Part shown: piece after piece, positions 2,608 through 59,278 of the stretch
Layout of the letters: every line of letters starts with the position of its first letter
Numbering within the stretch: position 1 is the first letter of the stretch
Assembly (NCBI GenBank): GCA_023665245.1
Contig: JAMPEH010000005.1
Span: 32,343 to 96,342, forward strand
Reading direction: 5' to 3'
From: Muribaculaceae bacterium
Lineage (GTDB): Bacteria > Pseudomonadota > Alphaproteobacteria > Rs-D84
DNA: 64,000 nt
Notes under the pieces: model-generated
What the model was told of the DNA's origin: nothing
Seen by the model: only the letters and a program-made list of their open reading frames with translations
The model's database searches: none
Translations under genes and position numbers: made by a program

Positions 2608-2845
2608 AGTTTTTCTCCTATTTTTGTTTAAACAAAAAACCACCAGAAAAATCTTAGTGGCTGGAGGTTCGAAACTATAAACTAGAATAGTGCTGCTTAT
2701 TCAATATATTCGCAAGCCCTCCAACCCACCGTGGTTGGAGATATTTTTCAGTCATAATTGACCGCTAGTTTCACGGGTTTCGACACCCCATACGAACAAA
2801 CCATTCGTACCCACACATCATAATTGATAAAAATCAGATTTACAA
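2608..2845 (-). promoter_or_regulatory. Structured leader RNA copy L1 with promoter and terminator
   Basis: Promoter TTGTAA (2840-2845), 17-nt spacer, TATGAT (2817-2822). The RNA then has a hairpin TACGAA/TTCGTA, a GGGGTGTCGAAACCC hairpin, S1 CTCCAACC (2733-2740), S2 GGTTGGAGG (2718-2726), a hairpin GCTT/AAGC with loop GAATATATTGAAT, a hairpin ACTAT/ATAGT, S3 CCTCCAGCC (2659-2667), and a terminator CCAC...GTGG with a T-tract (2634-2660). S2 can pair perfectly with S1, or with S3 using one G-U. This is the short (type 1) form, shared with L4 and L7. Confidence 0.75.
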
Positions 2846-5825: not shown

Positions 5826-6197
5826 TCACAATATAGCGCCCAGACAACTTAAACATTTTGCAGATTCTATTGTTGATAAATTTGTTTTAACATCACAACA
5901 AGTCTGCCGCACTTCCAGTGCATCACACGACGTATATTCCACTGTATAATTGCCGTTTGCGTCACTGCCTGTTGTGCTGGCACGTGAACACGTGCTGCCA
6001 CTTAGTTGCCAGCCATCTGGACACGAACGTATCACCTTATAATTATCGTTCGGACAACAATACTGTCCAGAAACGCACCTGCTTGTAAACGATTCCGCGG
6101 TTGTGCAAAATAAAGCCTCTGCTGCATTTGCCACATTAACGACTGTGACTGCTGCAAATGCCCCCATTACAAACAATAAATATGAATATATTTTCAT
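5826..6197 (-). CDS. Small Cys-rich exported protein
   Basis: A 123-residue protein with an N-terminal signal peptide (about residues 1-25, ending NVANA). The mature part has many cysteines (CTTAESFTSRC, QYCC, SCPDGW, TCSR, QTCC, CLSCLG), suggesting disulphide bonding in the envelope. I do not recognise a Pfam-like family. It is the shortest member of a set of Cys-rich exported proteins in this window, each preceded by the same type of structured leader (here L2). GGGAG 7 nt before the ATG supports the start. Confidence 0.75.
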   Translation of the reverse strand: MKIYSYLLFVMGAFAAVTVVNVANAAEALFCTTAESFTSRCVSGQYCCPNDNYKVIRSCPDGWQLSGSTCSRASTTGSDANGNYTVEYTSCDALEVRQTCCDVKTNLSTIESAKCLSCLGAIL

Positions 6198-6512
6198 TTC
6201 TGTACTCCCTTTTGTTTCGTGCCAAAATTGGCCAAATTACGAACAAACCGCCAGAAATTGGCGGTCGGGGATTTCAGAAAATCATAATTAAGAATGACCC
6301 CGATGACCTTTGGCAATGCCTGTTGTATAGTCATCGGATCCCCGACCAAAATACCAGTCGGGCAAGTAAAACAACGGCGCCTATGCGCGCCGACAGTTTC
6401 AGTCGGATTCAACATGCATTGCATGCCGCTTAATTACGGGATTTCTGACGTCCCTGAGCCAACATCCCTGTTGATTCAACATAAATTGTAGCCAATGCAC
6501 AAAAACAAGTAA
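6198..6512 (-). promoter_or_regulatory. Structured leader RNA copy L2 with promoter and terminator
   Basis: Promoter TTACTT (6507-6512), 16-nt spacer, TACAAT (6485-6490). Then hairpin CAAC/GTTG with an AGGGAT loop, GGGACGTCAGAAATCCC hairpin, S1 GCCCGACT (6356-6363), S2 GGTCGGGGAT (6338-6347), core hairpin CCGATGAC/GTCATCGG enclosing TATACAACAGG...CCAAAG, an A/T-rich hairpin GTCAT/ATGAT, S3 ATCCCCGACC (6263-6272), and terminator CCGCCA/TGGCGG (6248-6264) with a weak T-tract. S2 and S3 pair over 10 bp. Type 2 form. It fills the intergenic region before the gene at 5826-6197. Confidence 0.75.
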
Positions 6513-7677: not shown

Positions 7678-8520
7678 TTAATTTTGATATGGACACCCAC
7701 TGCCAGCAAAAATATATTCACCAAAATTATCTTTAAATATTTGATTACTTGGATTTGGATATGTGTAACAGGATGTTATACCAACCCCATTGCCACTTGT
7801 CGTCCAGCACCAGCCCGACGCACAATTTGAATCCCCTGTATTATTCCAGGTTGTGCCTATGCCACTATCAAAACTATATCCTGGACACGCCTTGCAACAT
7901 CCAGACATATTAGTATAAGAAGATTGCCCCGAAGTACATGGGGCCCCGGTTGACGTTATATACCATCCTGTCTCGCACCCAACAAATTTATACATACCAG
8001 ATGTCGGCATACCCGCCCACGATGTTGTTTGCATATTGCCTGCATAACCATAATTAGTAAAGAAACCGCTGTTGGAACAATAAATACCTGTAGTATCACA
8101 TTTTCCTGTACTACATCCAGACACATTATACCCACCCATCCCATCAGTACTGCCATAAACACATTTATACCATGCACACGGCAATGAGTCTTCCACACTG
8201 GATGATGAGCTGCCAGATGTACCTGTTGTTGATCCGCTACCAGTTCCATCAACTGCCCCCCCATTAATACAATTGCTATAATTATATCCACCATACTCTA
8301 ATCCCCCAGAACCAGCACTAGATATCGTCCCCCACCACGCATTTACATGTACAAAAAAACCATTTACACTAACACTGTTATAAGTTCCTGTATATTTTGC
8401 ATGTCCCACAGTACCAGATACCGTCTCTACGGCAGCATTACCTGATTGCCCCCATATTACACCAACAGCTGCCAACCCAACACCCAACATACGTGTTAAA
8501 ATTCTATTATATCGTCTCAT
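7678..8520 (-). CDS. Cys-rich exported protein
   Basis: A 280-residue protein that starts with a basic segment and a hydrophobic signal (MRRYNRILTRMLGVGLAAVGVIWG...GNAA). The mature part is rich in Gly, Ser, Tyr and Cys, with a GSGSTTGTSGSSSSS linker around residue 100 and recurring C-x(2-4)-C blocks such as GCCKACPGYSF. It belongs to the same loose group as the proteins at 15192, 44581, 47634 and 59279. Start 8520 was chosen because GGGGG lies 9 nt upstream. Leader L3 precedes it and a glycosyltransferase follows. Function unknown; a surface or envelope protein is likely. Confidence 0.75.
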   Translation of the reverse strand: MRRYNRILTRMLGVGLAAVGVIWGQSGNAAVETVSGTVGHAKYTGTYNSVSVNGFFVHVNAWWGTISSAGSGGLEYGGYNYSNCINGGAVDGTGSGSTTGTSGSSSSSVEDSLPCAWYKCVYGSTDGMGGYNVSGCSTGKCDTTGIYCSNSGFFTNYGYAGNMQTTSWAGMPTSGMYKFVGCETGWYITSTGAPCTSGQSSYTNMSGCCKACPGYSFDSGIGTTWNNTGDSNCASGWCWTTSGNGVGITSCYTYPNPSNQIFKDNFGEYIFAGSGCPYQN

Positions 8521-8809
8521 AATTAACATCCCCCATTTGTTGATAAAAAAATACCGCCAAAGGGAATCTGACGGTCGGGGAGTTAGCAAATCATAAGTTC
8601 AATGATTCTGTCAGCCTTTGGTATAAACCTATTGTATAGCTGACAGCTCCCCGGCGCGATGTCGGGGTATGAAATATGACGACGCAAAAGTACGAAAGTA
8701 ATCGGATTACGATACACTTTTGCACCGGAACTTACAGGCTTGCTACAGCCCCGAATTCAAATCCCTTTGAATTCAAATTTATTGTAATACACTATTAAAA
8801 TAAAATCTA
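8521..8809 (-). promoter_or_regulatory. Structured leader RNA copy L3 with promoter and terminator
   Basis: Promoter TAGATT (8804-8809), 17-nt spacer, TACAAT (8781-8786). Then hairpin GAATTCAAA/TTTGAATTC with loop GGGA, GGC/GCC hairpin, S1 ACCCCGAC (8661-8668), S2 GCCGGGGAG (8647-8655), core hairpin CTGTCAGC/GCTGACAG enclosing TATACAATAGG...CCAAAG (8608-8646), hairpin ATCAT/ATGAT (8590-8606), S3 CTCCCCGACC (8573-8582), and a terminator ACCGTCA/TTGGCGGT with a long T-tract (8545-8575). Here S2:S3 pair over 7 bp only. Type 2 form. Confidence 0.75.
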
Positions 8810-14921: not shown

Positions 14922-15191
14922 TTGCATTTACACACCGGACACGATATAATCACTACGTCACCGGGCATTCTGGTGATGGGGTGTGAAGACCCGTACTTGC
15001 GCGTCGGAATATAAACCTGTGGCGTATAAATACACTTTTTTTATTCTGCTAGAAACAAACTCCTGACCTGTGGTCAGGAGGGCTGTGAATATATTGAATA
15101 AACACACAATTCGCAAGATTGTCTTCAACCTCCTGACCACTCACATCTTGGGTGGTTTTTCATTTCGAAAACGAAACAGGAGATTGACCAA
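14922..15191 (+). promoter_or_regulatory. Structured leader RNA copy L4 with promoter and terminator
   Basis: Promoter TTGCAT (14922-14927), 17-nt spacer, TATAAT (14945-14950), predicted start near 14957. Then hairpin CACC/GGTG, GGGGTGTGAAGACCC, S1 CTCCTGACC (15060-15068), S2 GGTCAGGAGG (15072-15081), hairpin TGTG/CACA with loop AATATATTGAATAAA, hairpin CAAT/ATTG, S3 CCTCCTGACC (15129-15138), and terminator ACCAC/GTGGT with T-tract (15136-15160). AGGAG lies 8-12 nt before the gene's ATG. S2 is fully complementary to both S1 and S3. This is the clearest type 1 copy. Confidence 0.82.
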
Positions 15192-15836
15192 ATGAATAAA
15201 ATAATACTTTCTGTATTGATATCAACACTGGTAATTGATACAGCATTAGCAGCATCTACAACCAATTGTATATCATGCACAGACACTGGCACCGGACGCT
15301 GTGCATCTTATGGGGCTGACTGTTGTGCGCCATGCAAGCTTAACCTGGGTGATACAGGTGGCGACAGCAGTTTTTCCCCCAGCGAATGCGCAGAAAATTG
15401 CCCATCATCAAATTGGGTTACACTGCCTGATTATGGCGACGGGATACGCCCCGCAAATCCTGAATATTGGCAGGCAATGTGCGGCTATACAGATGGCCTA
15501 AACAATCTAAAAGGAACATGTTATTTCAGATGTATTGCCGGCCAATACGGCACAATTACATCGGCGTACACCACAAACGGCAAAACATCGTATATGGCGG
15601 AAAACAACTGTCAAACATGCCCACACAGTAACATAACACAAAAACCCCAAGAATTCGGTTTCGGAACCCGACCTGGCTTTGGCGATGGATGGACACTTGT
15701 GACACAATCCAACGACCCCAGAACATCCGTTGCCGGCGATAATACCGACATTACAAATTGTTATATTCCATCTGGGTCATACGGTGATGTAACCGGGAAA
15801 TTCACACTCAGTGACGATTGTTATTACAAAAATTAA
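15192..15836 (+). CDS. Cys-rich exported protein with CYIPxGS...DDCYY C-terminus
   Basis: A 214-residue protein with signal peptide (residues 1-21, ending ALAA) and about 16 cysteines in the mature part, in blocks such as CISCTDTGTGRC, DCCAPCK and NNCQTCPH. The C-terminus has ITNCYIPSGSYGDVTGKF then LSDDCYYKN. A near-identical layout ends the protein at 59279 (ITDCYIPKDS...DETGTYTLTDDCQY), which defines a family. Disulphide-rich surface or periplasmic role is likely; no function can be assigned. It is controlled by leader L4, and followed by a bidirectional terminator. Confidence 0.78.
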   Translation: MNKIILSVLISTLVIDTALAASTTNCISCTDTGTGRCASYGADCCAPCKLNLGDTGGDSSFSPSECAENCPSSNWVTLPDYGDGIRPANPEYWQAMCGYTDGLNNLKGTCYFRCIAGQYGTITSAYTTNGKTSYMAENNCQTCPHSNITQKPQEFGFGTRPGFGDGWTLVTQSNDPRTSVAGDNTDITNCYIPSGSYGDVTGKFTLSDDCYYKN

Positions 15837-19845: not shown

Positions 19846-20138
19846 AATGCTCCTCCTGTTGTGATAAAATTAAACCGCCAAAAGGAATTTGACGGTCGGG
19901 GAGTTGGTAATCATCTTGTTATTGATTCTGCCGCTTTCGGGTTTCCCCTGTTGTATAACAGACAGCCCCCCGACCCATATAAAGCAGGTCAGGGATATAT
20001 AACGGCGCAAAATTACTGGTAAATCGGATTAACGATGTCCACATGTTTTCGCACCGAACAAGATGGGCTACCACAGCCCCGAACCCAATTCCCATTGGAT
20101 TCAACTAATAGTCTATCACAGACTTGATTCCTGTGCAA
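19846..20138 (-). promoter_or_regulatory. Structured leader RNA copy L5 with promoter and terminator
   Basis: Promoter TTGCAC (20133-20138), 17-nt spacer, TAGACT (20110-20115). Then hairpin CCAA/TTGG with loop TGGGAA, GGGCT/AGCCC hairpin, S1 CCCTGACC (19987-19994), S2 GGTCGGGGGG (about 19966-19975), core hairpin CTGTCTGTTATACAACAGG...CGGCAG, hairpin ATCA/TGAT, S3 CTCCCCGACC (19894-19903), and hairpin ACCGTCA/TTGGCGGT (19874-19896) with only a weak T-tract. S1:S2 pair over 8 bp with one wobble, S2:S3 over 10 with one wobble. Type 2 form. Confidence 0.75.
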
Positions 20139-27405: not shown

Positions 27406-27482
27406 CGGGGTGTAGCTCAGTCTGGTAGAGTGCTTGCTTTGGGAGCAAGATGTCGAAGGTTCGAATCCTTTCGCCCCGACCA
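27406..27482 (+). tRNA. tRNA-Pro (UGG)
   Basis: Cloverleaf with acceptor CGGGGTG/CGCCCCG, D-arm GCTCAGTCTGGTAGAGT, anticodon stem CTTGC/GCAAG with loop TTTGGGA (anticodon TGG), T-arm AAGGTTCGAATCCTT and encoded CCA. It stands at the left border of the AT-rich island. Confidence 0.95.
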
Positions 27483-27493
27483 GTATTCAGAAA

Positions 27494-27517
27494 GGTCGCG
27501 CATTGCCGCGGCTTTTT
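27494..27517 (+). terminator. Terminator of tRNA-Pro
   Basis: GTCGCG/CGCGGC hairpin with a G-U pair, followed by TTTTT. Confidence 0.65.
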
Positions 27518-27698
27518 CTATGTGTGCGCCGCACACCGCGGGGATTCGCGAGCAAGCTTGACTCCGGTATCCCAGCAATATACGCAAAGCCAGCCATAAT
27601 ATACCAAAATGTATACAATGCCCAATTTCGCGGAGTCAAATAGGGTTGAAAATACGATTGTTTTTATCTATATGGATTAGTGCACGAAAGGTAGAACT

Positions 27699-28454
27699 AT
27701 GAACGATTTTGAGAATATAAAAATTTGGTTATTAAAAACATTTAAGGCCAACGATAAAAGCAAGTTAACTCAATTTACTACATGGCATGATATAGATATT
27801 CATTGGACCTGTTATAATAATAAGATAAATGAAAATACATGTAGAGATGTTGTTTGGTATTTGTGCAATATTGGTATATTGAGGCCAGGATGTTATGCTA
27901 ATAGTGGGCACTCAGGAGGAACGCCTACGGATTATTTCTGCATCACAGACTACGGGAAAAAATGGCTTGAAAATATAAATAGTGATAATTATGTGTCTAT
28001 TCCAAAAGTGCCGTCAGAATTTTTGAAATTATTTGATATAAATGTTAATAAATTTGGTGAGGCATTTGGACAAAGGCTTGAAGAGGCTGTCAATTGTTAT
28101 AATTTGCAGTTATATACGGCATGTCATGTTATGGTTGGATCTGCTATTGAAAGTGTTTTATTGGCGATATTAGAGGCCAAACAAGAAATTGTAGACCAAA
28201 CAAAAACAGAGATTTTAAATGATTATAAAAGAGGAAGTACCAAGAGACTCGAAGATAACACTATACACAAATGTTCAAGAGAATTAAAGGATTGTTATAA
28301 TGGGTTATGTGCCTTTATAAGGGATTTTAGAAATAATGCTGCACATGGTGAATCTGTTATTTCTTCTGAAAGTAGCGCATATTTATCTTTGATAAGTTTG
28401 TATCGTTTCGCTAATTTAGTCGGTAAGCAAGTAATAGAAAGTAATAAATCTTAA
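27699..28454 (+). CDS. HEPN-like (DUF4145-type) protein at island edge
   Basis: A 251-residue protein without signal peptide. Residues about 128-230 are helical (LEEAVNCYNLQLYTACHVMVGSAIESVLLAIL) and contain RDFRNNAAHGE, which fits the R-x4-6-H motif of HEPN domains; many HEPN proteins are RNases in toxin-antitoxin or abortive-infection systems, but others are inactive. The N-terminal about 110 residues look like a winged-helix or substrate-recognition region, not recognised. It ends by overlapping the stop codon of the convergent serine recombinase by 4 nt, so it belongs to the island. Base composition is AT-rich like its island neighbours. Confidence 0.6.
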   Translation: MNDFENIKIWLLKTFKANDKSKLTQFTTWHDIDIHWTCYNNKINENTCRDVVWYLCNIGILRPGCYANSGHSGGTPTDYFCITDYGKKWLENINSDNYVSIPKVPSEFLKLFDINVNKFGEAFGQRLEEAVNCYNLQLYTACHVMVGSAIESVLLAILEAKQEIVDQTKTEILNDYKRGSTKRLEDNTIHKCSRELKDCYNGLCAFIRDFRNNAAHGESVISSESSAYLSLISLYRFANLVGKQVIESNKS

Positions 28455-30076
28455 TTATAAAACTCCCGTTCCTGTTCTGCGAAATCCTCATACTTACTCG
28501 CAATCTGGAAAAGGATCTGCAGGTTAATGTGGGGTGGAATTTTGCTATCCATTATGTCGTTGATGATACGAGGAGACAGGTATGCCAGATTCAGGTATTT
28601 ATAAATCGTGCGCTGGTCGCGCTTTTCTGTGGTGGCAATCGCTTTGACACCAATACCACTTTCATAGGCTTTCTTGTATTTCCAGGCGTATGCCAGGGCT
28701 TTAATAAGCATTGTCGCATTTTCGGTTTTTGTTAATAAATCCCGACTGCAACCGGCGTTTCTGTGATTTATGCAAGTATGACTGGACAGATAGACCACCT
28801 GTTCAATGATAACCTGAGCCCCATCGGGGCTAAGGCAATAATCCATTGGTGTGGCGGATGTGTTGATATAACTGTCTTTTCTGAAATCGCTTAATTTATC
28901 CAAGTCCGTAATGTTTATAAATATGGTCAGTTTATGATCATTATACACAATTCTGTCAATCATAGCCTGTGCCAATGCTTCACTGTATTCCAATTGTTTC
29001 AGCGTCAAACGCGCCGTATCGGGTAATTTCCCCATATCAGAGTTCAAAAAGTCCCGTACATTATTACATACTATGGTGTCAAAATCCCCCGCCGGCAGGG
29101 ATATTTTACCACATTTGTAGTATTTATATTGCCGCAAGCCCTTGTTCCCGGTTTTGTTTTTGAACGCCATCCCATCAGCGGTGTATATCATATTATGGAA
29201 CAAGGTACGGCCACGACAATACACGGTGCGCCCCTTATGATTATTGTTGTCTTGCAGTTTTTGTTGCACGGTATCAAATAGTTCTTTGGTAATAATGGCT
29301 GGATGCTGACCATCAAAAACCTCGCCGGTTGATTTGTTGGGCAATTTGCCCAGATAGATTTGATTTTTCAATATCCGTTCCACGATATTCGCAGTCATTT
29401 CGCGACCGCCATGTATTTCGCCTTTCTTGCTCGTCCATTGTTTGCCACGAATCCCAAGAGCCGTAATTTGATCCCGGCAATCTAATAAACTATTGCTATC
29501 CAGGTATGTGTTAAATATTTTATTTACGGTTTCCCGTTCAGCCTCGTTTACAACAAGTTTCCCAAATTGTATATCATAACCAAGTGGTGGTATGCCGCCA
29601 ACCCATAGCCCCTTGGACTTTGTCGCGCGCATTTTATCGCGAACGCGTTCACTGGCGACCTCTCGTTCAAACTCTGCGAAACTCAATAACATATTTAATG
29701 TCAATTTACCCATGGCGGTGCTAGTGTCAAAACTTTGCGTTATACTGACCAAATTGCAATCGTATCGTTCAAAAATTTCCTTCATCATGCGTTTGAAGTC
29801 ATAAATACTGCGCGACAGACGATCTATTTTATATACTAATACGCAGTGTATTTTACCCGCCCGCACATCGTCCAACATTTGCTGTAATCCGGGGCGGGCC
29901 ATTGTGCCACCAGAAATCGCAGCATCGGAATAAGTTTTGAAATATTCCCAACCCTGAAACGCCTGGGACGCGATATATGATTTACAGGCCAATTCTTGGT
30001 TGTCTAACGAATTAAATTCCATATCCAGACCACGGTCGGACGATTTGCGTACATATATAGCGCATTGTATTTTCAT
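28451..30076 (-). CDS. Large serine recombinase (integrase)
   Basis: A 541-residue site-specific recombinase. The N-terminal resolvase domain begins CAIYVRKSSDRG (catalytic Ser in RKSSD), then YSDAAISGGTMARPGLQQML, VYKIDRLSRSIYDF and ASERVRDKM. It is followed by a recombinase domain (PPLGYD...IFNTYLDSNSLLDCRDQI), a zinc-ribbon-like region with YYKCGKISLPAGDFD and a helical tail. Such enzymes integrate and excise phages and islands. AGAGG 8 nt before the ATG at 30074-30076 supports this start. DUF2924 is divergently encoded next to it, a pairing common in alphaproteobacterial mobile DNA. Confidence 0.93.
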   Translation of the reverse strand: MKIQCAIYVRKSSDRGLDMEFNSLDNQELACKSYIASQAFQGWEYFKTYSDAAISGGTMARPGLQQMLDDVRAGKIHCVLVYKIDRLSRSIYDFKRMMKEIFERYDCNLVSITQSFDTSTAMGKLTLNMLLSFAEFEREVASERVRDKMRATKSKGLWVGGIPPLGYDIQFGKLVVNEAERETVNKIFNTYLDSNSLLDCRDQITALGIRGKQWTSKKGEIHGGREMTANIVERILKNQIYLGKLPNKSTGEVFDGQHPAIITKELFDTVQQKLQDNNNHKGRTVYCRGRTLFHNMIYTADGMAFKNKTGNKGLRQYKYYKCGKISLPAGDFDTIVCNNVRDFLNSDMGKLPDTARLTLKQLEYSEALAQAMIDRIVYNDHKLTIFINITDLDKLSDFRKDSYINTSATPMDYCLSPDGAQVIIEQVVYLSSHTCINHRNAGCSRDLLTKTENATMLIKALAYAWKYKKAYESGIGVKAIATTEKRDQRTIYKYLNLAYLSPRIINDIMDSKIPPHINLQILFQIASKYEDFAEQEREFYN

Positions 30077-30194
30077 TGTTTTTACCTCTTTGCTTGTGTG
30101 CATTAGTGCTTACAAATAGAAGTAAGTCCAGTGGTTTTATTGGCCTTGACTAATCATGTTTTGTAAGCGGTAATTGCAACAGAAGGGGTAAAAA

Positions 30195-30602
30195 ATGAAT
30201 GAATTAAAACAAATGTCACCCGATAAATTACGCGCATTATGGCGGAAATATTTTCAAAACGATGCACGACCGCAACTGCGCCCACTGTGGTATAAAATTC
30301 AATGTGAGAGAAGCGGTCAATGGATAGAGCAACGCCATCTGACGCGCTTGAATAAATATGCGATTGCGCCTGAATTGCACGCATCACGCGCCAATCAAAA
30401 TAAATATCATATTAAACCAGGCACGCATCTGGTCAAAAAGTATCGCGGGCGCGAGTATGTTATTGAGGCGCTGGGGAATGACAGTTTCCGATATAACGGC
30501 ACGACATATAAAAGCCTGTCTGCGGTGGCGATGGCAATCACGGGACATAAAGTATCAGGTTATGAATTTTTCCGATTTAATAATAAAGGAAAGAAACAAT
30601 GA
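30195..30602 (+). CDS. DUF2924 protein
   Basis: A 135-residue basic protein. The N-terminal LRALWRKYFQND is followed by RPLWYKIQCERSG and, in the C-terminal half, GTHLVKKYRGREYVIEALGNDSFRYNGTTYKSLSAVAMAITGHKVSGYEFF, here cut to the recognisable DUF2924 pattern: a G-x-x-L-x-R-x-W-x-G-x-x-H-like strand and SLSxVAxxITG. DUF2924 proteins are widespread in alphaproteobacterial phages and islands and usually sit beside a serine recombinase, as here; they may be recombination directionality factors, which is an inference. Divergent from the recombinase with a 118-nt spacer. Confidence 0.8.
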   Translation: MNELKQMSPDKLRALWRKYFQNDARPQLRPLWYKIQCERSGQWIEQRHLTRLNKYAIAPELHASRANQNKYHIKPGTHLVKKYRGREYVIEALGNDSFRYNGTTYKSLSAVAMAITGHKVSGYEFFRFNNKGKKQ

Positions 30603-30904
30603 AGTAAAAAAAGAAAAGTGCTTATGGATATATTGCGTACTTGGGTTATTTTTACAACTTTAATCAATTGGATTGTATAAAAACTCTATACTAACTTGGT
30701 TTTGTTTTAACTCCATATCAATTTTCAATAGTTCATGTAAACCGCATAATTATATTACCATAAACAAGAGTTTTTTTCTGGTTCTGAGGTCAAATCTCCT
30801 TGAATTCAAAGCAAGGTTTACAACAAGACGTACTAAGAAAAATTAAGTGTATCATTGTTTTGATAAACAAAAATTTTTAACGCTCTTAGAATATACCAGT
30901 TATG
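30603..30904. other. Intergenic, AT-rich, no gene seen
   Basis: About 300 bp between DUF2924 and the RloC-like gene. It is strongly AT-rich, with scattered stop codons in all frames. No clear hairpin terminator or promoter consensus stands out. Confidence 0.5.
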
Positions 30905-33418
30905 CTATACTGAAAAATTTGTATTTCCTTGATATACTTTTACTAAATCTGGTTGTGTTTTTACTAATATGCCTGCATCAATCTTAGATTTTTCTTCCGG
31001 TGTGATTTGCGGCATTGAATCAGTTTTTGCAAATTTATTAATGCTGGTCATATGCTCTGCGTCAAGTTCTGTCATTATCTCAATTGTACTCGTGGCGATT
31101 TGCTTCAAGTCATCTTCCGATATGTAAGAATTGTTGTCAGTCAAATTCTGAACGCTCCCGTGACTTTGTTTGTTGGTTATGTCAATAATTTTACCCAACT
31201 TCTCTGTCAACTCTTTTTTATAATTTTGTTTTTCTAAGAATCTCTTAGTATCACCTAAATCTGGACTCTTTACATGATTGTTTGCTTTTTCTTTATCAGA
31301 CCATAATATAGCGAATTTGAAAGATAAAAATGTGTCAAGAACTCTGCGTATAAAATTTGGCAAATATTTACGGGCCTCTGTGTATTGAATATTGCCATTA
31401 TTGAATTTTTGAATATCCTTTAACATATAAAAATATGTTGTTTCAAAATTCTCCAATTCTTCTGGTAATACACCCAAGGAATCTTTATCAAGAAAGAAGT
31501 GTTTTGGGTGGCAACCATAAATAGCATTAAAAAATTTCAAGAATAAGAAGTTATGGCTAAAAACAATCAATTGTTTAACTGACGAGAATGAATCTGTTAT
31601 TAGATGTGCCGTACTGTATAACCTGTTTTCGTCCAAACTTGAAATTGGGTCATCAATAACAACAATGGCTTCGGATTTGTCAGTGTCATTTAATTCATTC
31701 TCAAACTTACTAAGGAAATATGCAAATCCCAGTGCGGTTTTTTCACCATCGCTCAGACATTCTCTATTTTTCTCGGATTGTGAAGTATTGTATTTTACGA
31801 CAATATCTTTGGTTTCTTCCCCTGGTTTATCGCGCAAATCAATTGTGAATGTATCAATCCCCATAGTATTTAGGAATTTGTTTATTCCTTTGGATTCTGC
31901 TTTGATTTTAGACAGTTCGCTAATACGACTATTTTTCCAAAATAATAACCCGTCATGGTTATTTTCATCGGTTGTATCAATAGTTGCTAATTTCTGTTTC
32001 TCTGAATTGTACACAGACAACGCGCCATTTCTAGTATCTAACTGATTAAATTCTAATATTACCAAATCTTTATAGACCTGTTTTATATCATTTATAATAA
32101 TGTCTGTCCTTCGCGGAGCAATACCTTGCAACTTTTGCAATAATTCAGCCTTTAACGAATTTATAGCATTTATTGCAGAATCAAATCTTGCTAATTCGTT
32201 AATAGTTTTCGGTGGAATAACTGTTGTCATTCCAACGTTTTGTATTTTGTTTTCAATCAGTGCCTTGATTGATTCCAGCATAGAAGCGGCATTTGATACC
32301 AATGGTTTCATAAATTGTGATTCTGGCAGATGGTCTTTATATTTGGAATACAATGCTTCTAAGGCGTTTACGTTTCCATCTGTCTGTTTAAGATTTCCGA
32401 TAATGGTTTCTATGTTTGATTTTTGTTGTGAAAGTGCCGTTATAAATTCGTCATACGCCTTGTCAAAATACCCATTGAAATCTTTTAATATTGAATTCAA
32501 TTGTCCTGATATGTCGCTATTACATAATGGACAGTGGGATCTTTGCTGTTCTAGCACCCTTTTACCAAATCTGAACCATTCTTCAGTAGATTGTTTGTAT
32601 TGTTCGTCTGCAAATCCGTCTTTCACAGATCGGATTCGTCTTTCCAAAACATCTTTTGATAATTGCTGAATTGTTTTGCTCAATAACGTATTTATTTCTT
32701 GTGAATTCAGTCCAATTTTTTGTAATGATATATTCTGAATCTGAGTTATATGATTGTTGATTTCTTCGGATTTTGTGCTGAGAGAATACTCCTTAACCAG
32801 CGAACTTTTTCTGTCTTCCAGCTCTATTTCTGTTTGTTGCGGCAATGCTACATTATCAATCGTGAGATTTGTTAGGCGAGAATTGGAAACTTTACTACCA
32901 AAGTCTTTCCCCGCACGTTCCCTAATTTTTCCAAATTCTGTATTAAATAATTCTATTTGTTTGGTTGCTGTTTTGCGATTATCTTCTAATTCTTTGATTT
33001 TTGTATTTATATCTTGCAGTTCTGGTGTAGTCAAGCTATCAGTAGAACCACTGAATTTTCTTACCCCGTTTGATACATGGTCAGATACAAAATTAGAATT
33101 GAATACATAGAACGACTGCAAATTGTTTGTGGGATCATAGATAGTAGGCTTTAATAGGCCTTGCAACTGTATTTTTATACTTGTTTGCTCTGTATCATTT
33201 CTGGTTATATGTTTCAGAATTTCAGTTTTATTTTTTGTAAAGGATTCCGCACCAAACAGCGACAATACATTTGATATTGTTGATTTTCCAGAACCATTAA
33301 ATCCAAACACAATATTACAATTTTGGGTATTAGCTTTAGTTTTAGTACAAAAATCCTGTGTCTGCTGAAAATTAGCAAACTTTCCAATGTTTTTAAGTTC
33401 AATTATCTTTGTAATCAT
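30905..33418 (-). CDS. RloC/PrrC-like AAA_13 ATPase (candidate anticodon nuclease)
   Basis: An 837-residue SMC/Rad50-like ATPase. Walker A is FGFNGSGKST (residues 38-47), followed by coiled coil. CPLC at 296-299 lies at the coil tip in the position of a zinc hook, as in RloC. The ABC signature LSDGEKTALGFAYFL is near 555 and Walker B IVVIDDPISSLDEN near 585. The C-terminal domain has the AAA_13-type block NFIRRVLDTFLSFKF (Arg 691/692) and NKQSHGSV (His 753). In PrrC the tRNase triad is Arg-x3-Glu...His; here Asp 695 stands where Glu is expected, so nuclease activity is uncertain. It lies next to a restriction-modification system on the same strand. Confidence 0.7.
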   Translation of the reverse strand: MITKIIELKNIGKFANFQQTQDFCTKTKANTQNCNIVFGFNGSGKSTISNVLSLFGAESFTKNKTEILKHITRNDTEQTSIKIQLQGLLKPTIYDPTNNLQSFYVFNSNFVSDHVSNGVRKFSGSTDSLTTPELQDINTKIKELEDNRKTATKQIELFNTEFGKIRERAGKDFGSKVSNSRLTNLTIDNVALPQQTEIELEDRKSSLVKEYSLSTKSEEINNHITQIQNISLQKIGLNSQEINTLLSKTIQQLSKDVLERRIRSVKDGFADEQYKQSTEEWFRFGKRVLEQQRSHCPLCNSDISGQLNSILKDFNGYFDKAYDEFITALSQQKSNIETIIGNLKQTDGNVNALEALYSKYKDHLPESQFMKPLVSNAASMLESIKALIENKIQNVGMTTVIPPKTINELARFDSAINAINSLKAELLQKLQGIAPRRTDIIINDIKQVYKDLVILEFNQLDTRNGALSVYNSEKQKLATIDTTDENNHDGLLFWKNSRISELSKIKAESKGINKFLNTMGIDTFTIDLRDKPGEETKDIVVKYNTSQSEKNRECLSDGEKTALGFAYFLSKFENELNDTDKSEAIVVIDDPISSLDENRLYSTAHLITDSFSSVKQLIVFSHNFLFLKFFNAIYGCHPKHFFLDKDSLGVLPEELENFETTYFYMLKDIQKFNNGNIQYTEARKYLPNFIRRVLDTFLSFKFAILWSDKEKANNHVKSPDLGDTKRFLEKQNYKKELTEKLGKIIDITNKQSHGSVQNLTDNNSYISEDDLKQIATSTIEIMTELDAEHMTSINKFAKTDSMPQITPEEKSKIDAGILVKTQPDLVKVYQGNTNFSV

Positions 33419-33458
33419 ATGGAAATATTATATACTCATTTCTCCAAAGTCTCCGCTG

Positions 33459-35444
33459 TTAATTTAAGCTCAACATACGCCTTTTTATATGTGTATAGTA
33501 CCAATCAACCGGAGCAGAACCTTCTGCTTGATAAACTTCATCAAGCTGTTTGTACAAGTCTTTATAGGTTAGTCTCGAAGCAAGGATAGCTTTCAAAACA
33601 TCAATTTCCAGAGGGATTATTTTCATACCAACCTGTGTCTGCTTCTGATCTGAGCGACTATAATATGTCATATGCTTGCGCGAACGAAAATCTGAGATAA
33701 CATTAGGATCCAAATGATTAGTGGCAAATATACAATAAGAGTAATTATTGCGAGTTCTTATTAAATGGTCCCCTAAGTGTCTAGACACAGGTTCCATTTC
33801 CATCCTGCGTTGATTTGTGGCGTCAGCTAGGGTCGCTTCGATAAGAAGACAGTGTTGTGGATAGTGAGTGGAAGCTTCGTATTCATAAACAATATCAGCT
33901 TCTCCGCCGCCGGCATGCGTTTTTGGCAACAAATCTGCGTCTAATGATAATTTCATATATTCCAGAATATTTCCTTCGCGTTCACTGACTTTATACCATA
34001 ATATGCCCAGTATATATTCAAAAATAGTTGGAACATCAGCATTATCTGTTACTGTCTCTTGAACAAAAGAATCGTCCCTTGTTTGAAATGCGGTCAATAG
34101 CTCTTGTATCTTATCATCCGTAAATAGTTGATCTATTAAGAGGTTAAATCTCCGCAATCTCTCATTTTTTATAACTTCTCTTGCAGAAGCCAAATTAGTG
34201 GCATTTGTTCCAAGTTCTTGGTTGATTCCATTCAATACGGCATTCTCGCTTATAGTTAAGCACGACGAAATTTGTTCCAAGCGTGTAACTTTGTGGAGGT
34301 CATTATGCGCTTCAAATGCCGACCGATATAGACAATCTGCGATAGGGACAAAGAAACTCTTAGGAACAATGTCAAATTCTACTTTGTCTTCGTAAAATAA
34401 AACCAAATCCGTAAGTCTAAAGTATCTGCGATTGAGATCAAAGTAGTCATATAGTGTAGCTTTTGCTTTATTCACATGTATTATTTTGAAAAAAACTCTT
34501 TTTAGGTCTGCTTCGTTGCGTATAGAACTAAAAATACTATCTTTTAAGGCTTTACCAGGATCTGTCATAATGGCTTTTTTAGAGGAATTGTTAAACAAAA
34601 GAGCCACCCAATATTTTCCCGCTGTGTCGGATATGCTTCTAGCTGCTCGATATAACATTGAGATCTTAGAAGCGTCTTTGTACAGGAAAACGTCTTTCAA
34701 AGCTAAATACAAGCAGAAATATGGCTTATCATACCTCCTGCTCTTACGGTTTAAGCCTATTTCACAAATTAGGTTCTCGGTTACTGCGTTCTCCAGAAAA
34801 ACAGTTTGTGCCTGTTGGTAATTATCCATTTTAATAAGGCGATTAAAAATAATATCTTCTATAGTCTCTTGACCGGTCCGCAGTTTTTGGATATGTTCAA
34901 GAATTTCCTGCGTTGTCTCTTGATTTATACATAATGGCAGTAAATACATGAATTCCTGGAACGAAAGATAACCTAATTTTGATAACGCATATATAAAAAC
35001 TATAAAAGGACGCACTGTATGACCGTCTACAACAGAGATTGTTTTTAACAATTGCTGCACGAAAATCATACTATCTTTTTGTATTTGAAAAATATTATCA
35101 TCGTCAAAACTTCCTTCTAGACTTATGTTGAGCAATCTTTGACCAACTGCTGTTAAACGTCTATCTTTTGTTATCAAACCAATTTCAACTAGTCCGGATG
35201 TTTTTTCTCGTGCATCTTTTGGTTTGTTTTGGGCTGCGCCGACAACGAACCCTTTTTCTTGCATATAGTCATAATATGCTGATTGAAGCGCATTATTGCC
35301 ATTCCATACAACATCACTATTTTCTGGCAAATTCCAAAAATCGTTTAAGATTAGAAGTTGCTGTTCTATGGTTTTATTGAAATTCTTGGTTCTGAAACTG
35401 GTTGTTCCAAGGTTCCAACAAAAACTTTTATACGGAATCGGCAT
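33459..35444 (-). CDS. AlwI/BstNBI-like type IIS restriction endonuclease
   Basis: A 661-residue protein of the AlwI family. It starts YKSFCWNLGTTSFRTKNFN, the typical family beginning, and has DNA-recognition and helical regions before a C-terminal PD-(D/E)XK-like nuclease. The catalytic candidates are Glu 476 (FEYILGILWYKV), Asp 517 (GGGEADIVYEY), Glu 536 (LLIEATLAD) and Glu 549; their order and spacing resemble the residues reported for BstNBI. Family members recognise asymmetric 5-bp sites and cut outside them. AGGAAG 6-7 nt before the ATG supports the start. Two methyltransferase genes directly upstream on the same strand complete the system. Confidence 0.85.
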   Translation of the reverse strand: MPIPYKSFCWNLGTTSFRTKNFNKTIEQQLLILNDFWNLPENSDVVWNGNNALQSAYYDYMQEKGFVVGAAQNKPKDAREKTSGLVEIGLITKDRRLTAVGQRLLNISLEGSFDDDNIFQIQKDSMIFVQQLLKTISVVDGHTVRPFIVFIYALSKLGYLSFQEFMYLLPLCINQETTQEILEHIQKLRTGQETIEDIIFNRLIKMDNYQQAQTVFLENAVTENLICEIGLNRKSRRYDKPYFCLYLALKDVFLYKDASKISMLYRAARSISDTAGKYWVALLFNNSSKKAIMTDPGKALKDSIFSSIRNEADLKRVFFKIIHVNKAKATLYDYFDLNRRYFRLTDLVLFYEDKVEFDIVPKSFFVPIADCLYRSAFEAHNDLHKVTRLEQISSCLTISENAVLNGINQELGTNATNLASAREVIKNERLRRFNLLIDQLFTDDKIQELLTAFQTRDDSFVQETVTDNADVPTIFEYILGILWYKVSEREGNILEYMKLSLDADLLPKTHAGGGEADIVYEYEASTHYPQHCLLIEATLADATNQRRMEMEPVSRHLGDHLIRTRNNYSYCIFATNHLDPNVISDFRSRKHMTYYSRSDQKQTQVGMKIIPLEIDVLKAILASRLTYKDLYKQLDEVYQAEGSAPVDWYYTHIKRRMLSLN

Positions 35445-35459
35445 ACTAAACTTCCTTTT

Positions 35460-36377
35460 TTAATAATTTATTATCAAAACTTCCTCGCTAGAATCTGTTT
35501 TGTCCTTAGTGTGATAACTGGAGTTTGCATAAGTATATCTTAATGGAATTACTGTATATTTGTCAATATTATTACTGAGCCACTGTAACAGGATACTATT
35601 TTCTTTCCCTTTGCTTCTCAACACATTAGAAAGCGCAAACCTTATTCCATGTTGACTAAGCCTGTCCAGAAACTTTAGGAGTTCTTTCTCTGTTTGGTTG
35701 TTCCAACCGCCTTGCTCATTATATGTAGCGCAAGTGATTAAATATGGGGGATCTATATACACAAAATCATCTGATTTTAATGCTTCTATATCAAAATCAC
35801 GAAAATCTTTACACATAAACCAACACTCTTGCTCATGCAATCTATCGATGAAAGTAGATAGCTTTGTCGCCATATTGGAATTAAAGTCTCTTTTCCCAAC
35901 AGGTAAGTTAAAATCGCCATGCGCATTAAAACGTATCTGGTTATTAAATGCATAAACAATCAGAACATATAAGACCACATAATAGTAATAGTCTTCGTTT
36001 AACTTAGTATTAAAATCATCACGAAGTTTCAGAAATTTATCTTTATTGTAAGGCCCCAAGCCAGTACTACTGTCGCAACCATAATGATCGTATCCGTGCA
36101 AGCTAACGAGTGAAAGCTCATACTTGTCTATTATTTGATATACCCAGTCAAATATAGCTTTTTTATCAAGATTCTTTAGTGTGTTATACAGATAAATAAG
36201 TTCTCTGTTAAGGTCATTATATATCACAGAACTAGCTTGTACATTGATTCCGACATTACAACCACCACAAAACAGGTCCACAAAAGTGTTTATCTTTTTT
36301 GGAAATAGTGGAAGAATCTGCGACAAAAGCTTTGCCTTTCCGCCAGTATAATTAAGAGGAGATTGTATGAAAGGCAA
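35460..36377 (-). CDS. D12-class DNA adenine methyltransferase
   Basis: A 305-residue N6-adenine methyltransferase of the Dam/D12 class. SAM motif FVDLFCGGCNVG follows an N-terminal PLNYTGGKAKLL; the catalytic motif IV is VYIDPPYLI. The only reasonable start is the TTG at 36375-36377, directly behind the TAA of the upstream methyltransferase, with GGAAC upstream; the next ATG is far inside the domain. One of two enzymes expected to protect the two strands of an asymmetric site. Target sequence cannot be read from the protein; GGATC would be the AlwI precedent. Confidence 0.87.
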   Translation of the reverse strand: MPFIQSPLNYTGGKAKLLSQILPLFPKKINTFVDLFCGGCNVGINVQASSVIYNDLNRELIYLYNTLKNLDKKAIFDWVYQIIDKYELSLVSLHGYDHYGCDSSTGLGPYNKDKFLKLRDDFNTKLNEDYYYYVVLYVLIVYAFNNQIRFNAHGDFNLPVGKRDFNSNMATKLSTFIDRLHEQECWFMCKDFRDFDIEALKSDDFVYIDPPYLITCATYNEQGGWNNQTEKELLKFLDRLSQHGIRFALSNVLRSKGKENSILLQWLSNNIDKYTVIPLRYTYANSSYHTKDKTDSSEEVLIINY

Positions 36378-37412: not shown

Positions 37413-37738
37413 GTTCCTTTCCCCTTCTTTTTAAGAAGTTAGAACAAAACTACTATATAAGTCAAGAAACAAACGATAGAGACCCAGTCAAGTCATCACA
37501 TAATTTGTCAAGCGTTCTAAAAACACTATTTTGTCTTGTAACACAGAATAATGATCCGCTCATAGATAGTCTTTATATATGGGAAAGGGGTTATTGCGAA
37601 GCTTAGCAGTTATCTGGCGCTATCCACAAAATGTGTTATTATATCCAATTTTATCATCCTACGACATGATTACATATTGTATTACCATATTGATATTTCT
37701 AAGGTTTTGTGTATAATAGCAAAAAATAGGATATAATT
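37413..37738. other. Divergent intergenic region between R-M operon and KAP gene
   Basis: 326 bp, AT-rich. It should hold the promoters of both the minus-strand R-M operon and the plus-strand KAP gene. No unambiguous -35/-10 pair was chosen. AGGATATAATT directly before the KAP ATG gives its ribosome-binding site. No coding potential seen. Confidence 0.5.
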
Positions 37739-45345: not shown

Positions 45346-45645
45346 ATTTCCCCTCTTGGTTAAGAATCAAAAAACCGCCATGGAATTTGGCGGTCGGGGA
45401 GTTAAGAAAATCACGCATTAGTGTGACCCCGCCGGTCTTTGGGCATGCACCCTGTGGTATAACTGACGGCTCCCCGACCTGATTTGATCGGGGGAATACA
45501 ATAAATGGCGCATACGCGCCGCACTTGTACTGCGGACATACGACGAAATAATTCGCCGCCTAATGCATGGACTTTCTTACGGTCCCGAAGCCAACGTCCC
45601 ATTGGATTCGCATATAATTATACATGGCACCGACCACAAAAACAA
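45346..45645 (-). promoter_or_regulatory. Structured leader RNA copy L6 with promoter and terminator
   Basis: Promoter TTGTTT (45640-45645), 17-nt spacer, TATAAT (45617-45622). Then hairpin CCAA/TTGG with loop TGGGACG, GGACCGTAAGAAAGTCC hairpin, S1 CCCCCGATC (45486-45494), S2 GGTCGGGGAG (45470-45479), core hairpin GCCGTCAG...CCGGC with TATACCACAGGG...CCCAAAG (45431-45470), hairpin TCACAC/GTGTGA-like with GTGATTTTC, S3 CTCCCCGACC (45392-45401), and terminator ACCGCCA/TGGCGGT with six T (45369-45394). The clearest type 2 copy. Confidence 0.82.
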
Positions 45646-48278: not shown

Positions 48279-48535
48279 GATTCAAACTCCTGGTTTGTAA
48301 AAGAAACAAAAAACCGTCATTTTTGACGGTCAGGAGGTTGAGAACAATCGAAAGAATTGCGTCACGTATTTAATATTTCGTGACCCTCCTGACCAAATAA
48401 TGGTTCAGGAGTTTTTATTTTTTCATCAGGACATTAAAACAGGCGCACACAGCGCGCCATAGGACAATATTCTGACGCTTTCGCAGAGGTTCTCACGCCT
48501 CATCAACGGAACACCCGTCAACGTTTATTATTATA
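48279..48535 (-). promoter_or_regulatory. Structured leader RNA copy L7 with -10 and terminator
   Basis: A TATAAT lies at 48530-48535; the -35 is weak. Then hairpin AACGG/CCGTT, GAGGCGTGAGAACCTC hairpin, S1 CTCCTGAACC (48402-48411, one extra A), S2 GGTCAGGAGG (48385-48394), hairpin GTCACG/CGTGAC, hairpin CAAT/ATTG, S3 CCTCCTGACC (48328-48337), and a perfect terminator ACCGTCA/TGACGGT with six T (48308-48330). Type 1 form, closest to L4. Confidence 0.8.
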
Positions 48536-58963: not shown

Positions 58964-59278
58964 TTGTTTTTAATCGCACCCTATTTTATAATTGCCCCGA
59001 ACCAGCAGGGATGTTGGTTCGGGGACCTAAGAAATCCTTTATTTCGGCGGTATGAAAATATCGTAATCCATGATGAACATCACCGACGCAGGCAACCTCT
59101 GCATGTTGGCGATGCATTTTATCACCCGACTGTGTCTTCGGTCGGGGGTCTGTTGGTTATACAATAGTGTGCCCCGCACACAAAAACCAACAGGGTCATT
59201 CCGAAATATGATTTTCTTAATCCCCGACCGCCAAACCATGGCGGTTTTGTTTAAACAACAAACCAAGGGATACAGAAA
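58964..59278 (+). promoter_or_regulatory. Structured leader RNA copy L8 with promoter and terminator
   Basis: Promoter TTGTTT (58964-58969), 17-nt spacer, TATAAT (58987-58992). Then hairpin CCCCGAACCA/TGGTTCGGGG, conserved GGACCTAAGAAATCC, S1 ACCCGACT (59124-59131), S2 GGTCGGGGGT (59140-59149), core hairpin CTGTTGGTT/AACCAACAG with TATACAATAG (59150-59193), hairpin GTCAT/ATGAT, S3 ATCCCCGACC (59220-59229), and terminator ACCGCCA/TGGCGGT with TTTT (59227-59248). GGGA precedes the gene's ATG. Type 2 form. Confidence 0.8.

What the first reader, a model, noticed from the sequence alone, without database searches (positions are those of the whole stretch)
14922..15191. A repeated structured leader RNA with three interchangeable pairing segments (L4 as reference, eight copies in 64 kb)
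Seen directly: eight intergenic regions (L1 2608-2845, L2 6198-6512, L3 8521-8809, L4 14922-15191, L5 19846-20138, L6 45346-45645, L7 48279-48535, L8 58964-59278) share one order of elements: promoter, 5' hairpin, small GGG/CCC hairpin, S1, S2, two hairpins, S3, intrinsic terminator, then gene. S2 is complementary to both S1 and S3 in most copies. The actual sequence changes between copies (GGTTGGAGG, GGTCAGGAGG, GGTCGGGGAG, GGTCGGGGAT) while S3 changes to match, which is compensatory change supporting S2:S3 pairing. Seven copies precede exported proteins and one a basic peptide. Inference: a cis-acting RNA attenuator family, or small RNAs that end at the terminator with occasional readthrough. 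I recognise no known riboswitch, T-box or leader consensus.
Basis: partly seen in the sequence, partly recalled or inferred. Interest (0 to 1): 0.92.

Follow-up and report, generated by a model that had tools for sequence, protein, structure and literature searches.

The report
Self-addressed RNA leaders on surface genes
Bacteria of one gut group carry many copies of a folded RNA switch, related to phage-type control RNAs, in front of genes for mostly secreted proteins, and each copy carries its own matching sequence pairs, which suggests that every gene may have a private on/off switch.

Summary
All eight leaders are real, and S2:S3 is a covarying helix. A covariance model finds 49, 55 and 56 copies in three roughly 1-Mb relatives and at least one copy in 179 of 190 genomes of the order. 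It is not an orphan: four of the eight cores (L3, L5, L6, L8) are sub-threshold, full-length matches to Rfam sRNA-Xcc1 (RF02221).

The loop of the GGG/CCC hairpin (a1) pairs with the linker before S3 (a'). The next segment (b1) pairs with the P3 loop (b'). Each is at least 6 Watson-Crick bases in 91 of 100 copies, against about 5 of 100 when partners are swapped. The a1/a' pairing recurs in proteobacterial sRNA-Xcc1 loci; several precede phage-antirepressor genes, and there a further b2 complement lies near the start. This is the logic of phage C4 and P4 CI antisense RNA.

Best reading: a C4/Xcc1-type RNA domesticated as an attenuator. The isolated leader is predicted to fold S1:S2 + a1b1:b'a' + terminator (OFF); RNA starting at S2 folds as the C4-like three-way junction. 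Of 95 targets, 70 look secreted. Sign of regulation, cis versus trans action, and signal are not shown.

The parts
14984..14990 (+). L4 a1: loop of the small GGG/CCC hairpin H2 (TGAAGAC)
   Evidence: complementary to a' (GTCTTCA)
14996..15001 (+). L4 b1 (CTTGCG)
   Evidence: complementary to b' in the P3 loop
15060..15068 (+). L4 S1 (CTCCTGACC)
   Evidence: pairs S2
15072..15081 (+). L4 S2 = 5' strand of P1 (GGTCAGGAGG)
   Evidence: pairs S1 or S3; GGT start resembles the published C4 processing motif GGW (passage)
15112..15117 (+). L4 b' in P3 loop (CGCAAG)
15121..15127 (+). L4 a' linker between P3 and S3 (GTCTTCA)
15129..15138 (+). L4 S3 = 3' strand of P1 (CCTCCTGACC), overlaps 5' arm of terminator T2
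15135..15161 (+). L4 intrinsic terminator T2
   Evidence: terminator scan
15175..15182 (+). L4 Shine-Dalgarno region (AACAGGAG)
15192..15836 (+). L4 gene: 214-residue Cys-rich protein with signal-like N-terminus
   Evidence: no Pfam
2633..2743 (-). L1 core S1..T2 (a1 2777-2783, b1 2765-2771, b' 2679-2685, a' 2669-2675); gene 1975-2607 has YadA anchor
6241..6366 (-). L2 core (a1 6442-6448, b1 6429-6436, b' 6285-6292, a' 6274-6280); gene 5826-6197
8546..8671 (-). L3 core (a1 8740-8745, b1 8728-8734, b' 8594-8600, a' 8584-8589); RF02221 33.4 bits at 8566-8655; gene 7678-8520
19867..19995 (-). L5 core (a1 20069-20073, b1 20057-20064, b' 19913-19920, a' 19905-19909); best RF02221 match in the window, 19886-19975, 40.9 bits; start codon at 19845, 36-residue basic peptide
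45368..45497 (-). L6 core (a1 45573-45579, b1 45560-45566, b' 45415-45421, a' 45403-45409); RF02221 29.1 bits at 45384-45479; gene 44581-45345
48307..48413 (-). L7 core (a1 48489-48495, b1 48478-48483, b' 48349-48354, a' 48339-48345); gene 47634-48278
48442..48458 (-). L7 upstream terminator-like hairpin T1 (GGCGCGCTGTGTGCGCC + TGTTTTAATG)
59120..59251 (+). L8 core (a1 59028-59034, b1 59040-59047, b' 59201-59208, a' 59213-59219); RF02221 37.8 bits at 59140-59237; gene 59279-59944

Best explanation
Each leader is a C4/sRNA-Xcc1-type RNA module built into the 5' UTR of a single gene and used as a transcription attenuator with a private bipartite address. Order: H2 hairpin with a1 in its loop, b1, often terminator T1, S1, S2 (P1 5' strand), P2 with a conserved loop, P3 with b' in its loop, a' linker, S3 (P1 3' strand, overlapping the 5' arm of terminator T2), Shine-Dalgarno, gene. 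Default (inferred from predicted folding): the nascent RNA closes as a1b1:b'a' around S1:S2, S3 is left to T2, and transcription stops before the gene. Alternative: when a1b1 or S1 is unavailable, S2:S3 closes the three-way junction, takes the ACC of S3 out of T2, and the terminator is weakened. An RNA cut or starting at S2 (reported by RNase P for C4; suggested for sRNA-Xcc1 by its 88-nt RACE length against an 87-position model that begins at S2) takes the three-way-junction fold with b' and a' exposed, so it could bind a1b1 of a new transcript from the same gene. Shown: the elements, their covariation, the private matching, the homology, and the gene context. Inferred: termination, the OFF default, processing, and trans action. 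Unknown: the sign of feedback and the signal.
For: Covarying core: 8 copies; 108 copies. Non-circular tests with H2 located by sequence only (100 of 108 copies; 8 dropped, among them L6; list): a1:a' at least 6 WC in 91/100 own against mean 5.5, max 16 in 200 swaps; b1:b' at least 6 in 91/100 against mean 5.2, max 12 in 200 swaps; both at least 5 in 92/100. S1:S2 and S2:S3 match their own copy better than swapped copies. T2 T-run 102/108; T1-like 52/93 against 8/93 shuffled. MFE of the isolated leader: S2 with the 30 nt upstream 95, with S3 0 of 100; strict a1:a' 93 of 94 and b1:b' 90 of 95 testable. On 92 copies T2 forms in 90; blocking a1b1 gives S2:S3 in 17 of 92, against 0 of 92 when the same number of scattered upstream positions is blocked; RNA starting at S2 gives S2:S3 in 88 of 92. 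Homology: RF02221 full-length sub-threshold matches in four of eight window leaders and 11 of 15 related loci. a1:a' in RF02221 loci of the class and phylum: at least 7 WC in 11/15 and 21/25, against swapped means 2.7 (max 7) and 3.8 (max 9); b2:b' within 90 nt downstream in 17/25 against 6.2, max 12. C4 processing and a'/b' roles from passages of PMC5320573; P4 CI seqA/seqC from passages of PMC4825925.
Against: No expression data: termination, readthrough and processing are unobserved, and no promoter is established. With a1b1 blocked only 17 of 92 copies switch in silico and T2 still forms in 81, so a1b1 alone does not flip most copies. The order's leaders lack a2/b2 near the start (a' 4.19 against 4.05, b' 4.22 against 4.11, n=95), so the canonical C4 step is missing. 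No sign of selection for orthogonality: cross-matches are as rare between genomes G001 and G036 (1.7-1.8%) as within them (1.8-2.1%), and window against G001 gives 3.5% (10 of 287), so purely cis pairing explains the private codes equally well. S3:Shine-Dalgarno complementarity is confounded with S3 class. The window copies score far below the RF02221 cut-off (best 40.9 against 53 bits), and L1, L2, L4 and L7 give no match at E up to 10. T1 is not found by the rule used in 41 of 93.
Confidence: 0.6

Rival explanations
1. Purely cis attenuator or riboswitch: a1b1:b'a' and S1:S2 against S2:S3 are two folds of one RNA, toggled by a ligand or protein that binds the conserved P2 loop (UAUACAAYA...AAAG); no trans-acting RNA exists.
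For: The isolated leader folds into one closed state in most copies (S1:S2 95 of 100; strict a1:a' 93 of 94, b1:b' 90 of 95). The P2 internal loop is conserved in the longer-loop copies (visible). No orthogonality selection is seen.
Against: sRNA-Xcc1 is a discrete, RACE-mapped 88-nt RNA in Xanthomonas (passages), about the length of the 87-position Rfam model that matches the core; proteobacterial loci have a b2 near the start, as a trans target would, though a cis partner could look the same. The few recognisable target domains share no metabolic theme.
Confidence: 0.25
2. Small RNA genes: the leaders are terminated sRNAs that act in trans on other mRNAs, and the downstream gene is only incidental readthrough (like the multicopy C4-like sRNAs of Acinetobacter).
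For: Strong T2 in 102 of 108. A multicopy C4-like sRNA family is published in A. baumannii (abstract and passages). A processed RNA would expose a'/b'.
Against: The start codon chosen lies within 70 nt of the core in 95 of 108, often with a Shine-Dalgarno sequence (by eye); 70 of these 95 genes pass a signal-peptide heuristic against 111 of 431 other ORFs. Such gene specificity would not arise by chance placement. a'/b' match their own a1/b1.
Confidence: 0.1
3. Mobile or integron-type element: the leader-gene units are cassettes and the conserved structure serves recombination (attC-like DNA hairpins).
For: sRNA-Xcc1 is integron-borne in Xanthomonas (passages); copy number varies between relatives.
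Against: In the window the copies lie on both strands and scattered among ordinary genes. They covary with G-U states as RNA does and carry terminators and gene-proximal Shine-Dalgarno sequences. The one type-A motif scanned has 0 exact matches in IMG/VR. No integron integrase search was made.
Confidence: 0.05

Closest known systems
sRNA-Xcc1 (Rfam RF02221), integron-borne RNA of Xanthomonas
   Same: P1 enclosing P2 (asymmetric AAUACAAUA...GAA loop) and P3; full-length sub-threshold matches; upstream a1:a' pairing in RF02221 loci of the class and phylum
   Different: Window copies score below the cut-off; the order's leaders have a strong T2, S1 and no a2/b2, 49-56 copies in the three genomes counted, and mostly secreted-looking targets. 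Of 25 RF02221 loci from the phylum sample, nine had a Bro-N, P22_AR_N, KilA-N, Rha or SymE gene starting 24-224 nt downstream (10 of 24 called ORFs scanned), as did two named plasmids.
C4 antisense RNA of phages P1/P7 and relatives (RF01695, c4-2 RF02944)
   Same: Three stems P1-P3; cut out of a longer transcript; a'/b' loops; GGW at P1 5' end (passages); upstream a1b1 partners (recalled; 'c4-a1b1' only listed by name in the passage)
   Different: No Rfam C4 match in the window; no a2/b2 near the start in the order's leaders; mostly secreted-looking targets instead of antirepressors; added intrinsic terminators
CI RNA / immunity region of satellite phage P4
   Same: One RNA segment complementary to an upstream and a downstream segment, with transcription termination as the output (passages)
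   Different: Sequence not compared; CI prevents expression of replication genes (passage); single copy (recalled)
Acinetobacter baumannii Group 1 C4-like sRNAs
   Same: A C4-type RNA expanded to many copies in one bacterial genome (abstract and passages)
   Different: In the passages seen they are described as processed sRNAs, not as leaders each heading its own secreted-protein gene

Membership tests
sRNA-Xcc1 RF02221 | Score at or above gathering cut-off (53 bits) | tested here: not met
   Window: no copy reached it; L5 40.9, L8 37.8, L3 33.4 bits, L6 29.1; L1, L2, L4, L7 no match at E up to 10. Closest relative genome G001: best 51.8. Over cut-off in 3 of 142 genomes of the class.
sRNA-Xcc1 RF02221 | Full-length P1/P2/P3 architecture with the AAUACAAUA-type loop | tested here: met
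   Model 1-87 aligned in L3, L5, L6, L8 and in 11 of 15 related loci at E up to 0.34, best 2e-5. Copies with the short P2 loop (L1, L4, L7) do not match.
C4 antisense RNA RF01695/RF02944 | Rfam match | tested here: not met
   No C4 match in the window at E up to 10 or in the 15 related loci at E up to 1
C4 antisense RNA RF01695/RF02944 | a' and b' complementary to upstream a1 and b1 | tested here: met
   91/100 and 91/100 against about 5 swapped
C4 antisense RNA RF01695/RF02944 | a2/b2 target over the ribosome-binding site of the downstream gene | tested here: not met
   Order's leaders: own equals swapped. In 25 RF02221 loci of the phylum sample: b2 17/25 against 6.2 (max 12), a2 15/25 against 5.9 (max 12), within 90 nt downstream; in 15 loci of the class inconclusive (b2 7 against 3.5, max 9; a2 7 against 3.8, max 8)
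C4 antisense RNA RF01695/RF02944 | RNase P processing at GGW, 5' end of P1, with RCC 3' of P1 | tested here: inconclusive
   Sequence only: GG at P1 5' end 81/108 (GGT 78), R[CT]C after P1 82/108; cleavage not testable here
Terminator-type leader attenuator | Intrinsic terminator in the 5' UTR overlapping a competing helix | tested here: met
   S3/T2 overlap in sequence; T-run 102/108; chosen start within 70 nt in 95/108
Terminator-type leader attenuator | Conditional readthrough in vivo | not testable with these tools
   no expression data
Known riboswitch, T-box or ribosomal leader | Rfam match | tested here: not met
   Only two tRNAs reach a cut-off in the window

The most novel reading that the evidence does not exclude
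A phage-immunity-type antisense RNA has been domesticated across an order of gut Alphaproteobacteria into about 50 parallel self-silencing switches per 1-Mb genome in the genomes counted in full. Each secreted-protein gene makes an RNA that recognises only its own leader, so the cell can turn surface proteins on and off one by one: an RNA-based route to surface variation without DNA rearrangement. The same logic makes sRNA-Xcc1 a C4-class immunity RNA of mobile antirepressor genes rather than a general virulence sRNA.
Probability: 0.3. Interest if true: 0.93.

Novelty: new variant of a known kind. Interest (0 to 1): 0.83.

Why it matters
It ties a little-explained Rfam family (sRNA-Xcc1) to the C4/P4 type of antisense immunity by a testable set of pairings (a1b1, a'b', a2b2). 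It also reveals one of the densest leader-RNA families I know of (recalled comparison): 49, 55 and 56 copies in three roughly 1-Mb genomes, and present in 179 of 190 genomes of a gut order. If the private addresses work in trans, they give a ready set of RNA regulators that act on one gene each, and a mechanism for individual control of surface proteins in uncultured gut bacteria.

Tried and rejected
Aligning the eight regions all on + gave a poorer alignment; six belong on -. S3:Shine-Dalgarno sequestration looked attractive, because the SD wording follows the S3 class and the overall match beats swaps (4.93 against 4.15; -8.8 against -7.4 kcal/mol), but within classes it is not above swaps for CAGGAG (5.62 against 5.61) and TTGGAG (4.83 against 4.75, max 4.88) and only slightly so for CGGG (4.53 against 4.28, max of 200 swaps 4.5), so I do not claim it. 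a2/b2 near the start in the order's leaders: rejected. Selection for orthogonal addresses: not seen. One exact type-A motif in viral contigs: 0 matches; other forms were not scanned. Metagenome contigs were not available. The 2011 sRNA-Xcc1 paper is not held; I know it only through citations. One paper search for leader RNAs in this order returned nothing. In the library held, one paper contains both 'sRNA-Xcc1' and 'C4 antisense': the Xylella paper PMC12189769, whose passages seen list the two as separate families in one table; so I found no published link between them, in this library and for these words. My note says 12 of 15 loci; the right count is 11 of 15 loci in 12 rows. A first, circular test of a1:a' was replaced by the non-circular one.

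Full report
WHAT WAS CHECKED. The eight leaders are real. Read on their own strands (L4 and L8 on +, six on -), they share one order of elements. A covariance model of the eight S1-to-terminator cores (R1) finds these eight in the window and no ninth; the next match, E=0.23, is the reverse strand of L4. The structure S2:S3 + P2 + P3 + terminator tip is 89.9% paired on the eight copies, with 18 of 27 pairs changed on both sides, against a shuffled mean of 6.6 (0 of 500 reach it). On 108 copies from the window and two relatives it is 94.4% paired, with 25 of 26 pairs changed on both sides against a shuffled mean of 19.9 (0 of 500; this alignment was fitted to the model).

WHERE IT LIVES. The window is from a gut alphaproteobacterium. 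Its histidyl-tRNA synthetase is 88% identical to a MAG labelled 'uncultured Rickettsiales', and one Candidatus Enterousia MAG is among the 80 loci kept; UvrA is 94% identical in the genome of the first MAG (G001). R1 found 52 matches at E up to 0.002 in 1.29 Mb of these 80 loci, matches in 48 of 59 relatives, 49, 55 and 56 copies in G001, G036 and G018, and at least one match in 179 of 190 genomes of the order, 11 having none (copy numbers there are capped at 18 scored candidates, and the strict filters lose weak matches).

WHAT IT IS RELATED TO. At gathering scores Rfam gives only two tRNAs in the window. At looser thresholds four of the eight cores match sRNA-Xcc1, RF02221, over the whole model, all below its cut-off of 53 bits: L5 40.9 bits (E=0.00095), L8 37.8 (E=0.0052), L3 33.4 (E=0.057) in the whole-window scan, and L6 29.1 bits (E 0.0016-0.0039 in scans of 171 and 421 bases; not listed at E up to 10). 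L1, L2, L4 and L7 have no such match. In 15 related loci, 11 match RF02221 at E up to 0.34, the best 47.3 bits, E=2e-5, all below the cut-off. RF02221 itself is found in 19 of 142 genomes of the class (3 over cut-off; G001 51.8 bits) and in 51 of 299 genomes of the phylum (35 over cut-off), and in 0 of 14 control genomes. Both sampling searches used strict filters. sRNA-Xcc1 was mapped by RACE as an 88-nt RNA in Xanthomonas (passages of PMC2996969). In Xanthomonas integrons it lies upstream of symE (passages of PMC12444791). One Xylella genome has seven copies, five of them clustered (passages of PMC12189769).

THE MISSED PAIRINGS. Reading the leaders beside the RF02221 loci showed that the loop of the small GGG/CCC hairpin (a1) is complementary to the linker between P3 and S3 (a'), and that the segment just after that hairpin (b1) is complementary to the P3 loop (b'). 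To test this without circularity I located the hairpin by sequence frame alone (100 of 108 copies; the 8 others, including L6, were dropped, list; L6 shows both pairs by eye). a1:a' has at least 6 Watson-Crick bases in 91 of 100 copies, against a mean of 5.5 and a maximum of 16 of 100 in 200 swaps between copies; there are 64 distinct 9-nt linkers. b1:b' has at least 6 in 91 of 100, against a mean of 5.2 and a maximum of 12 in 200 swaps. Both are at least 5 in 92 of 100. Shared descent of copies makes the swap control stricter, not laxer (my inference). Cross-matching of both pairs (at least 5 each) between different leaders is rare: 0 of 42 in the window, 29 of 1640 in G001, 56 of 2652 in G036. 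It is as rare between G001 and G036 (74 of 4264) and 10 of 287 from window to G001, so selection for insulation is not shown.

THE SAME LOGIC IN RF02221 LOCI. In 15 loci of the class sample (two of them, L154 in G001 and L160 in G124, from the order itself) a1:a' has at least 7 bases in 11, against a swapped mean of 2.7 (max 7), and b1:b' at least 6 in 14 against 6.2 (max 11). In the 25 loci fetched from the phylum sample a1:a' is 21 against 3.8 (max 9); b1:b' is 22 against 11.2 (max 19). In those 25, but not in the order's leaders, there is a third set of complements within 90 nt downstream: b2:b' at least 6 in 17 of 25 against 6.2 (max 12), and a2:a' 15 of 25 against 5.9 (max 12). In the 15 class loci a2 and b2 are inconclusive (7 and 7, against 3.8, max 8, and 3.5, max 9) (all; the order's leaders n=95, own equal to swapped). 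Of 10 downstream proteins from the 25 loci scanned with Pfam, nine hit: Bro-N three, P22_AR_N two, Rha two, KilA-N one, SymE one (I chose these ten of 24 called ORFs; their starts lie 24-224 nt after the core). Two named plasmids have the RNA 38-41 nt upstream of a Bro-N (Pseudomonas aeruginosa) and a Rha gene (Pantoea). This is the layout of phage C4 RNA: three stems, processing by RNase P at a GGW 5' of P1, a' giving specificity and b' covering the ribosome site (passages of PMC5320573); the a1/b1 naming is recalled and appears as a motif name, 'c4-a1b1', in PMC2864571 (passage). P4 CI RNA pairs with seqA and seqC and terminates transcription (passage of PMC4825925). In the order's leaders P1 starts with GG in 81 of 108 (GGT 78) and is followed by R[CT]C in 82 of 108; both fit RNase P substrates (RCCA dependence, passages of PMC12710915), but the latter also serves as the terminator arm.

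HOW IT MOST LIKELY WORKS. S1:S2 and S2:S3 are mutually exclusive; S2:S3 is the stronger in 86 of 108 by duplex energy. Yet in the minimum-energy fold of the isolated leader S2 pairs with the 30 nt just upstream in 95 and with S3 in 0 of 100; a1 pairs with a' strictly in 93 of 94 testable copies and b1 with b' in 90 of 95; T2 is complete in 90 of 92. RNA that starts at S2 folds as the three-way junction in 88 of 92. Blocking a1b1, as a bound RNA would, moves S2 to S3 in 17 of 92 and lowers complete T2 to 81, while blocking the same number of scattered upstream positions gives 0 and 91. So the a1b1 lock, with S1:S2, favours termination, and opening it favours the alternative fold, but for most copies not decisively. 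A further terminator-like hairpin T1 between the hairpin H2 and S1 is found in 52 of 93, against 8 of 93 in mononucleotide shuffles. These are thermodynamic predictions, not measurements. Whether the lock is opened by a sister RNA in trans, by a protein or by a ligand is open. Precedents exist for both signs: CI terminates, while IsrK in trans raised anrP expression (passages of PMC4825925).

WHAT IT CONTROLS. A same-strand ORF of at least 30 residues starting within 160 nt of the core was found for 107 of 108 copies, which by itself is a weak criterion and has no control; 95 have the chosen start within 70 nt. By a simple hydrophobicity rule 70 of these 95 look secreted, against 111 of 431 other ORFs; cysteine content is 5.5% (leader genes of at least 80 residues) against 1.7%. 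Of 98 downstream proteins scanned (of 101 listed), few have Pfam domains: the HTH_31 model in five, RgpF in two, single cases of glycosyltransferase 2, Chlam_PMP, PAP2, trypsin, beta-barrel, OmpA and YadA anchor domains. The consensus of the 98 shows a shared Cys-rich C-terminal pattern.

VERDICT. Real and strongly structured. Related to, but by Rfam's cut-off not a member of, sRNA-Xcc1; works like C4/CI RNA, with transcription termination in place of the a2/b2 block (inferred). New variant of a known kind, on an unusual scale.

Noticed in passing
window 27406-39364: A tRNA gene is followed by a large serine recombinase (28451-30103), an AAA_13/PrrC-like ATPase (30905-33418), an AlwI-type restriction enzyme with two D12 methyltransferases (33459-37412) and a KAP-family NTPase (37739-39364): a likely mobile defence island.
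   Followed up: partly
window 48787-54105: A 1772-residue protein on the - strand near L7 without any Pfam match at 1e-5.
   Followed up: no
L153 and genome G150: Another genome of the class (1.4 Mb) with 13 RF02221 matches, two over the cut-off: a possible independent expansion.
   Followed up: no
L195 2890-2958: A sub-threshold c4-2 RNA (RF02944, 34.8 bits, cut-off 41) lies about 1.3 kb from an sRNA-Xcc1 copy that heads a P22_AR_N antirepressor-type gene.
   Followed up: no
L205 1501-1586 and 2780-2867: Two sRNA-Xcc1 copies about 1.2 kb apart on one strand; the one at 1501-1586 precedes a SymE gene.
   Followed up: no
leaders in L118, L136, L121, L133, L113, L167: Small helix-turn-helix-like regulators (by eye) are also preceded by the leader; the HTH_31 model hits 5 of the 98 downstream proteins scanned.
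   Followed up: no
P2 loop of the copies: Two loop types, UAUACAAYA with an apical hairpin and AAAG, or a short AAUAUAUUGAAUA loop, tend to go with different S3 words; some copies look intermediate (L114:4142, L135:816) (by eye, output partly cut).
   Followed up: no
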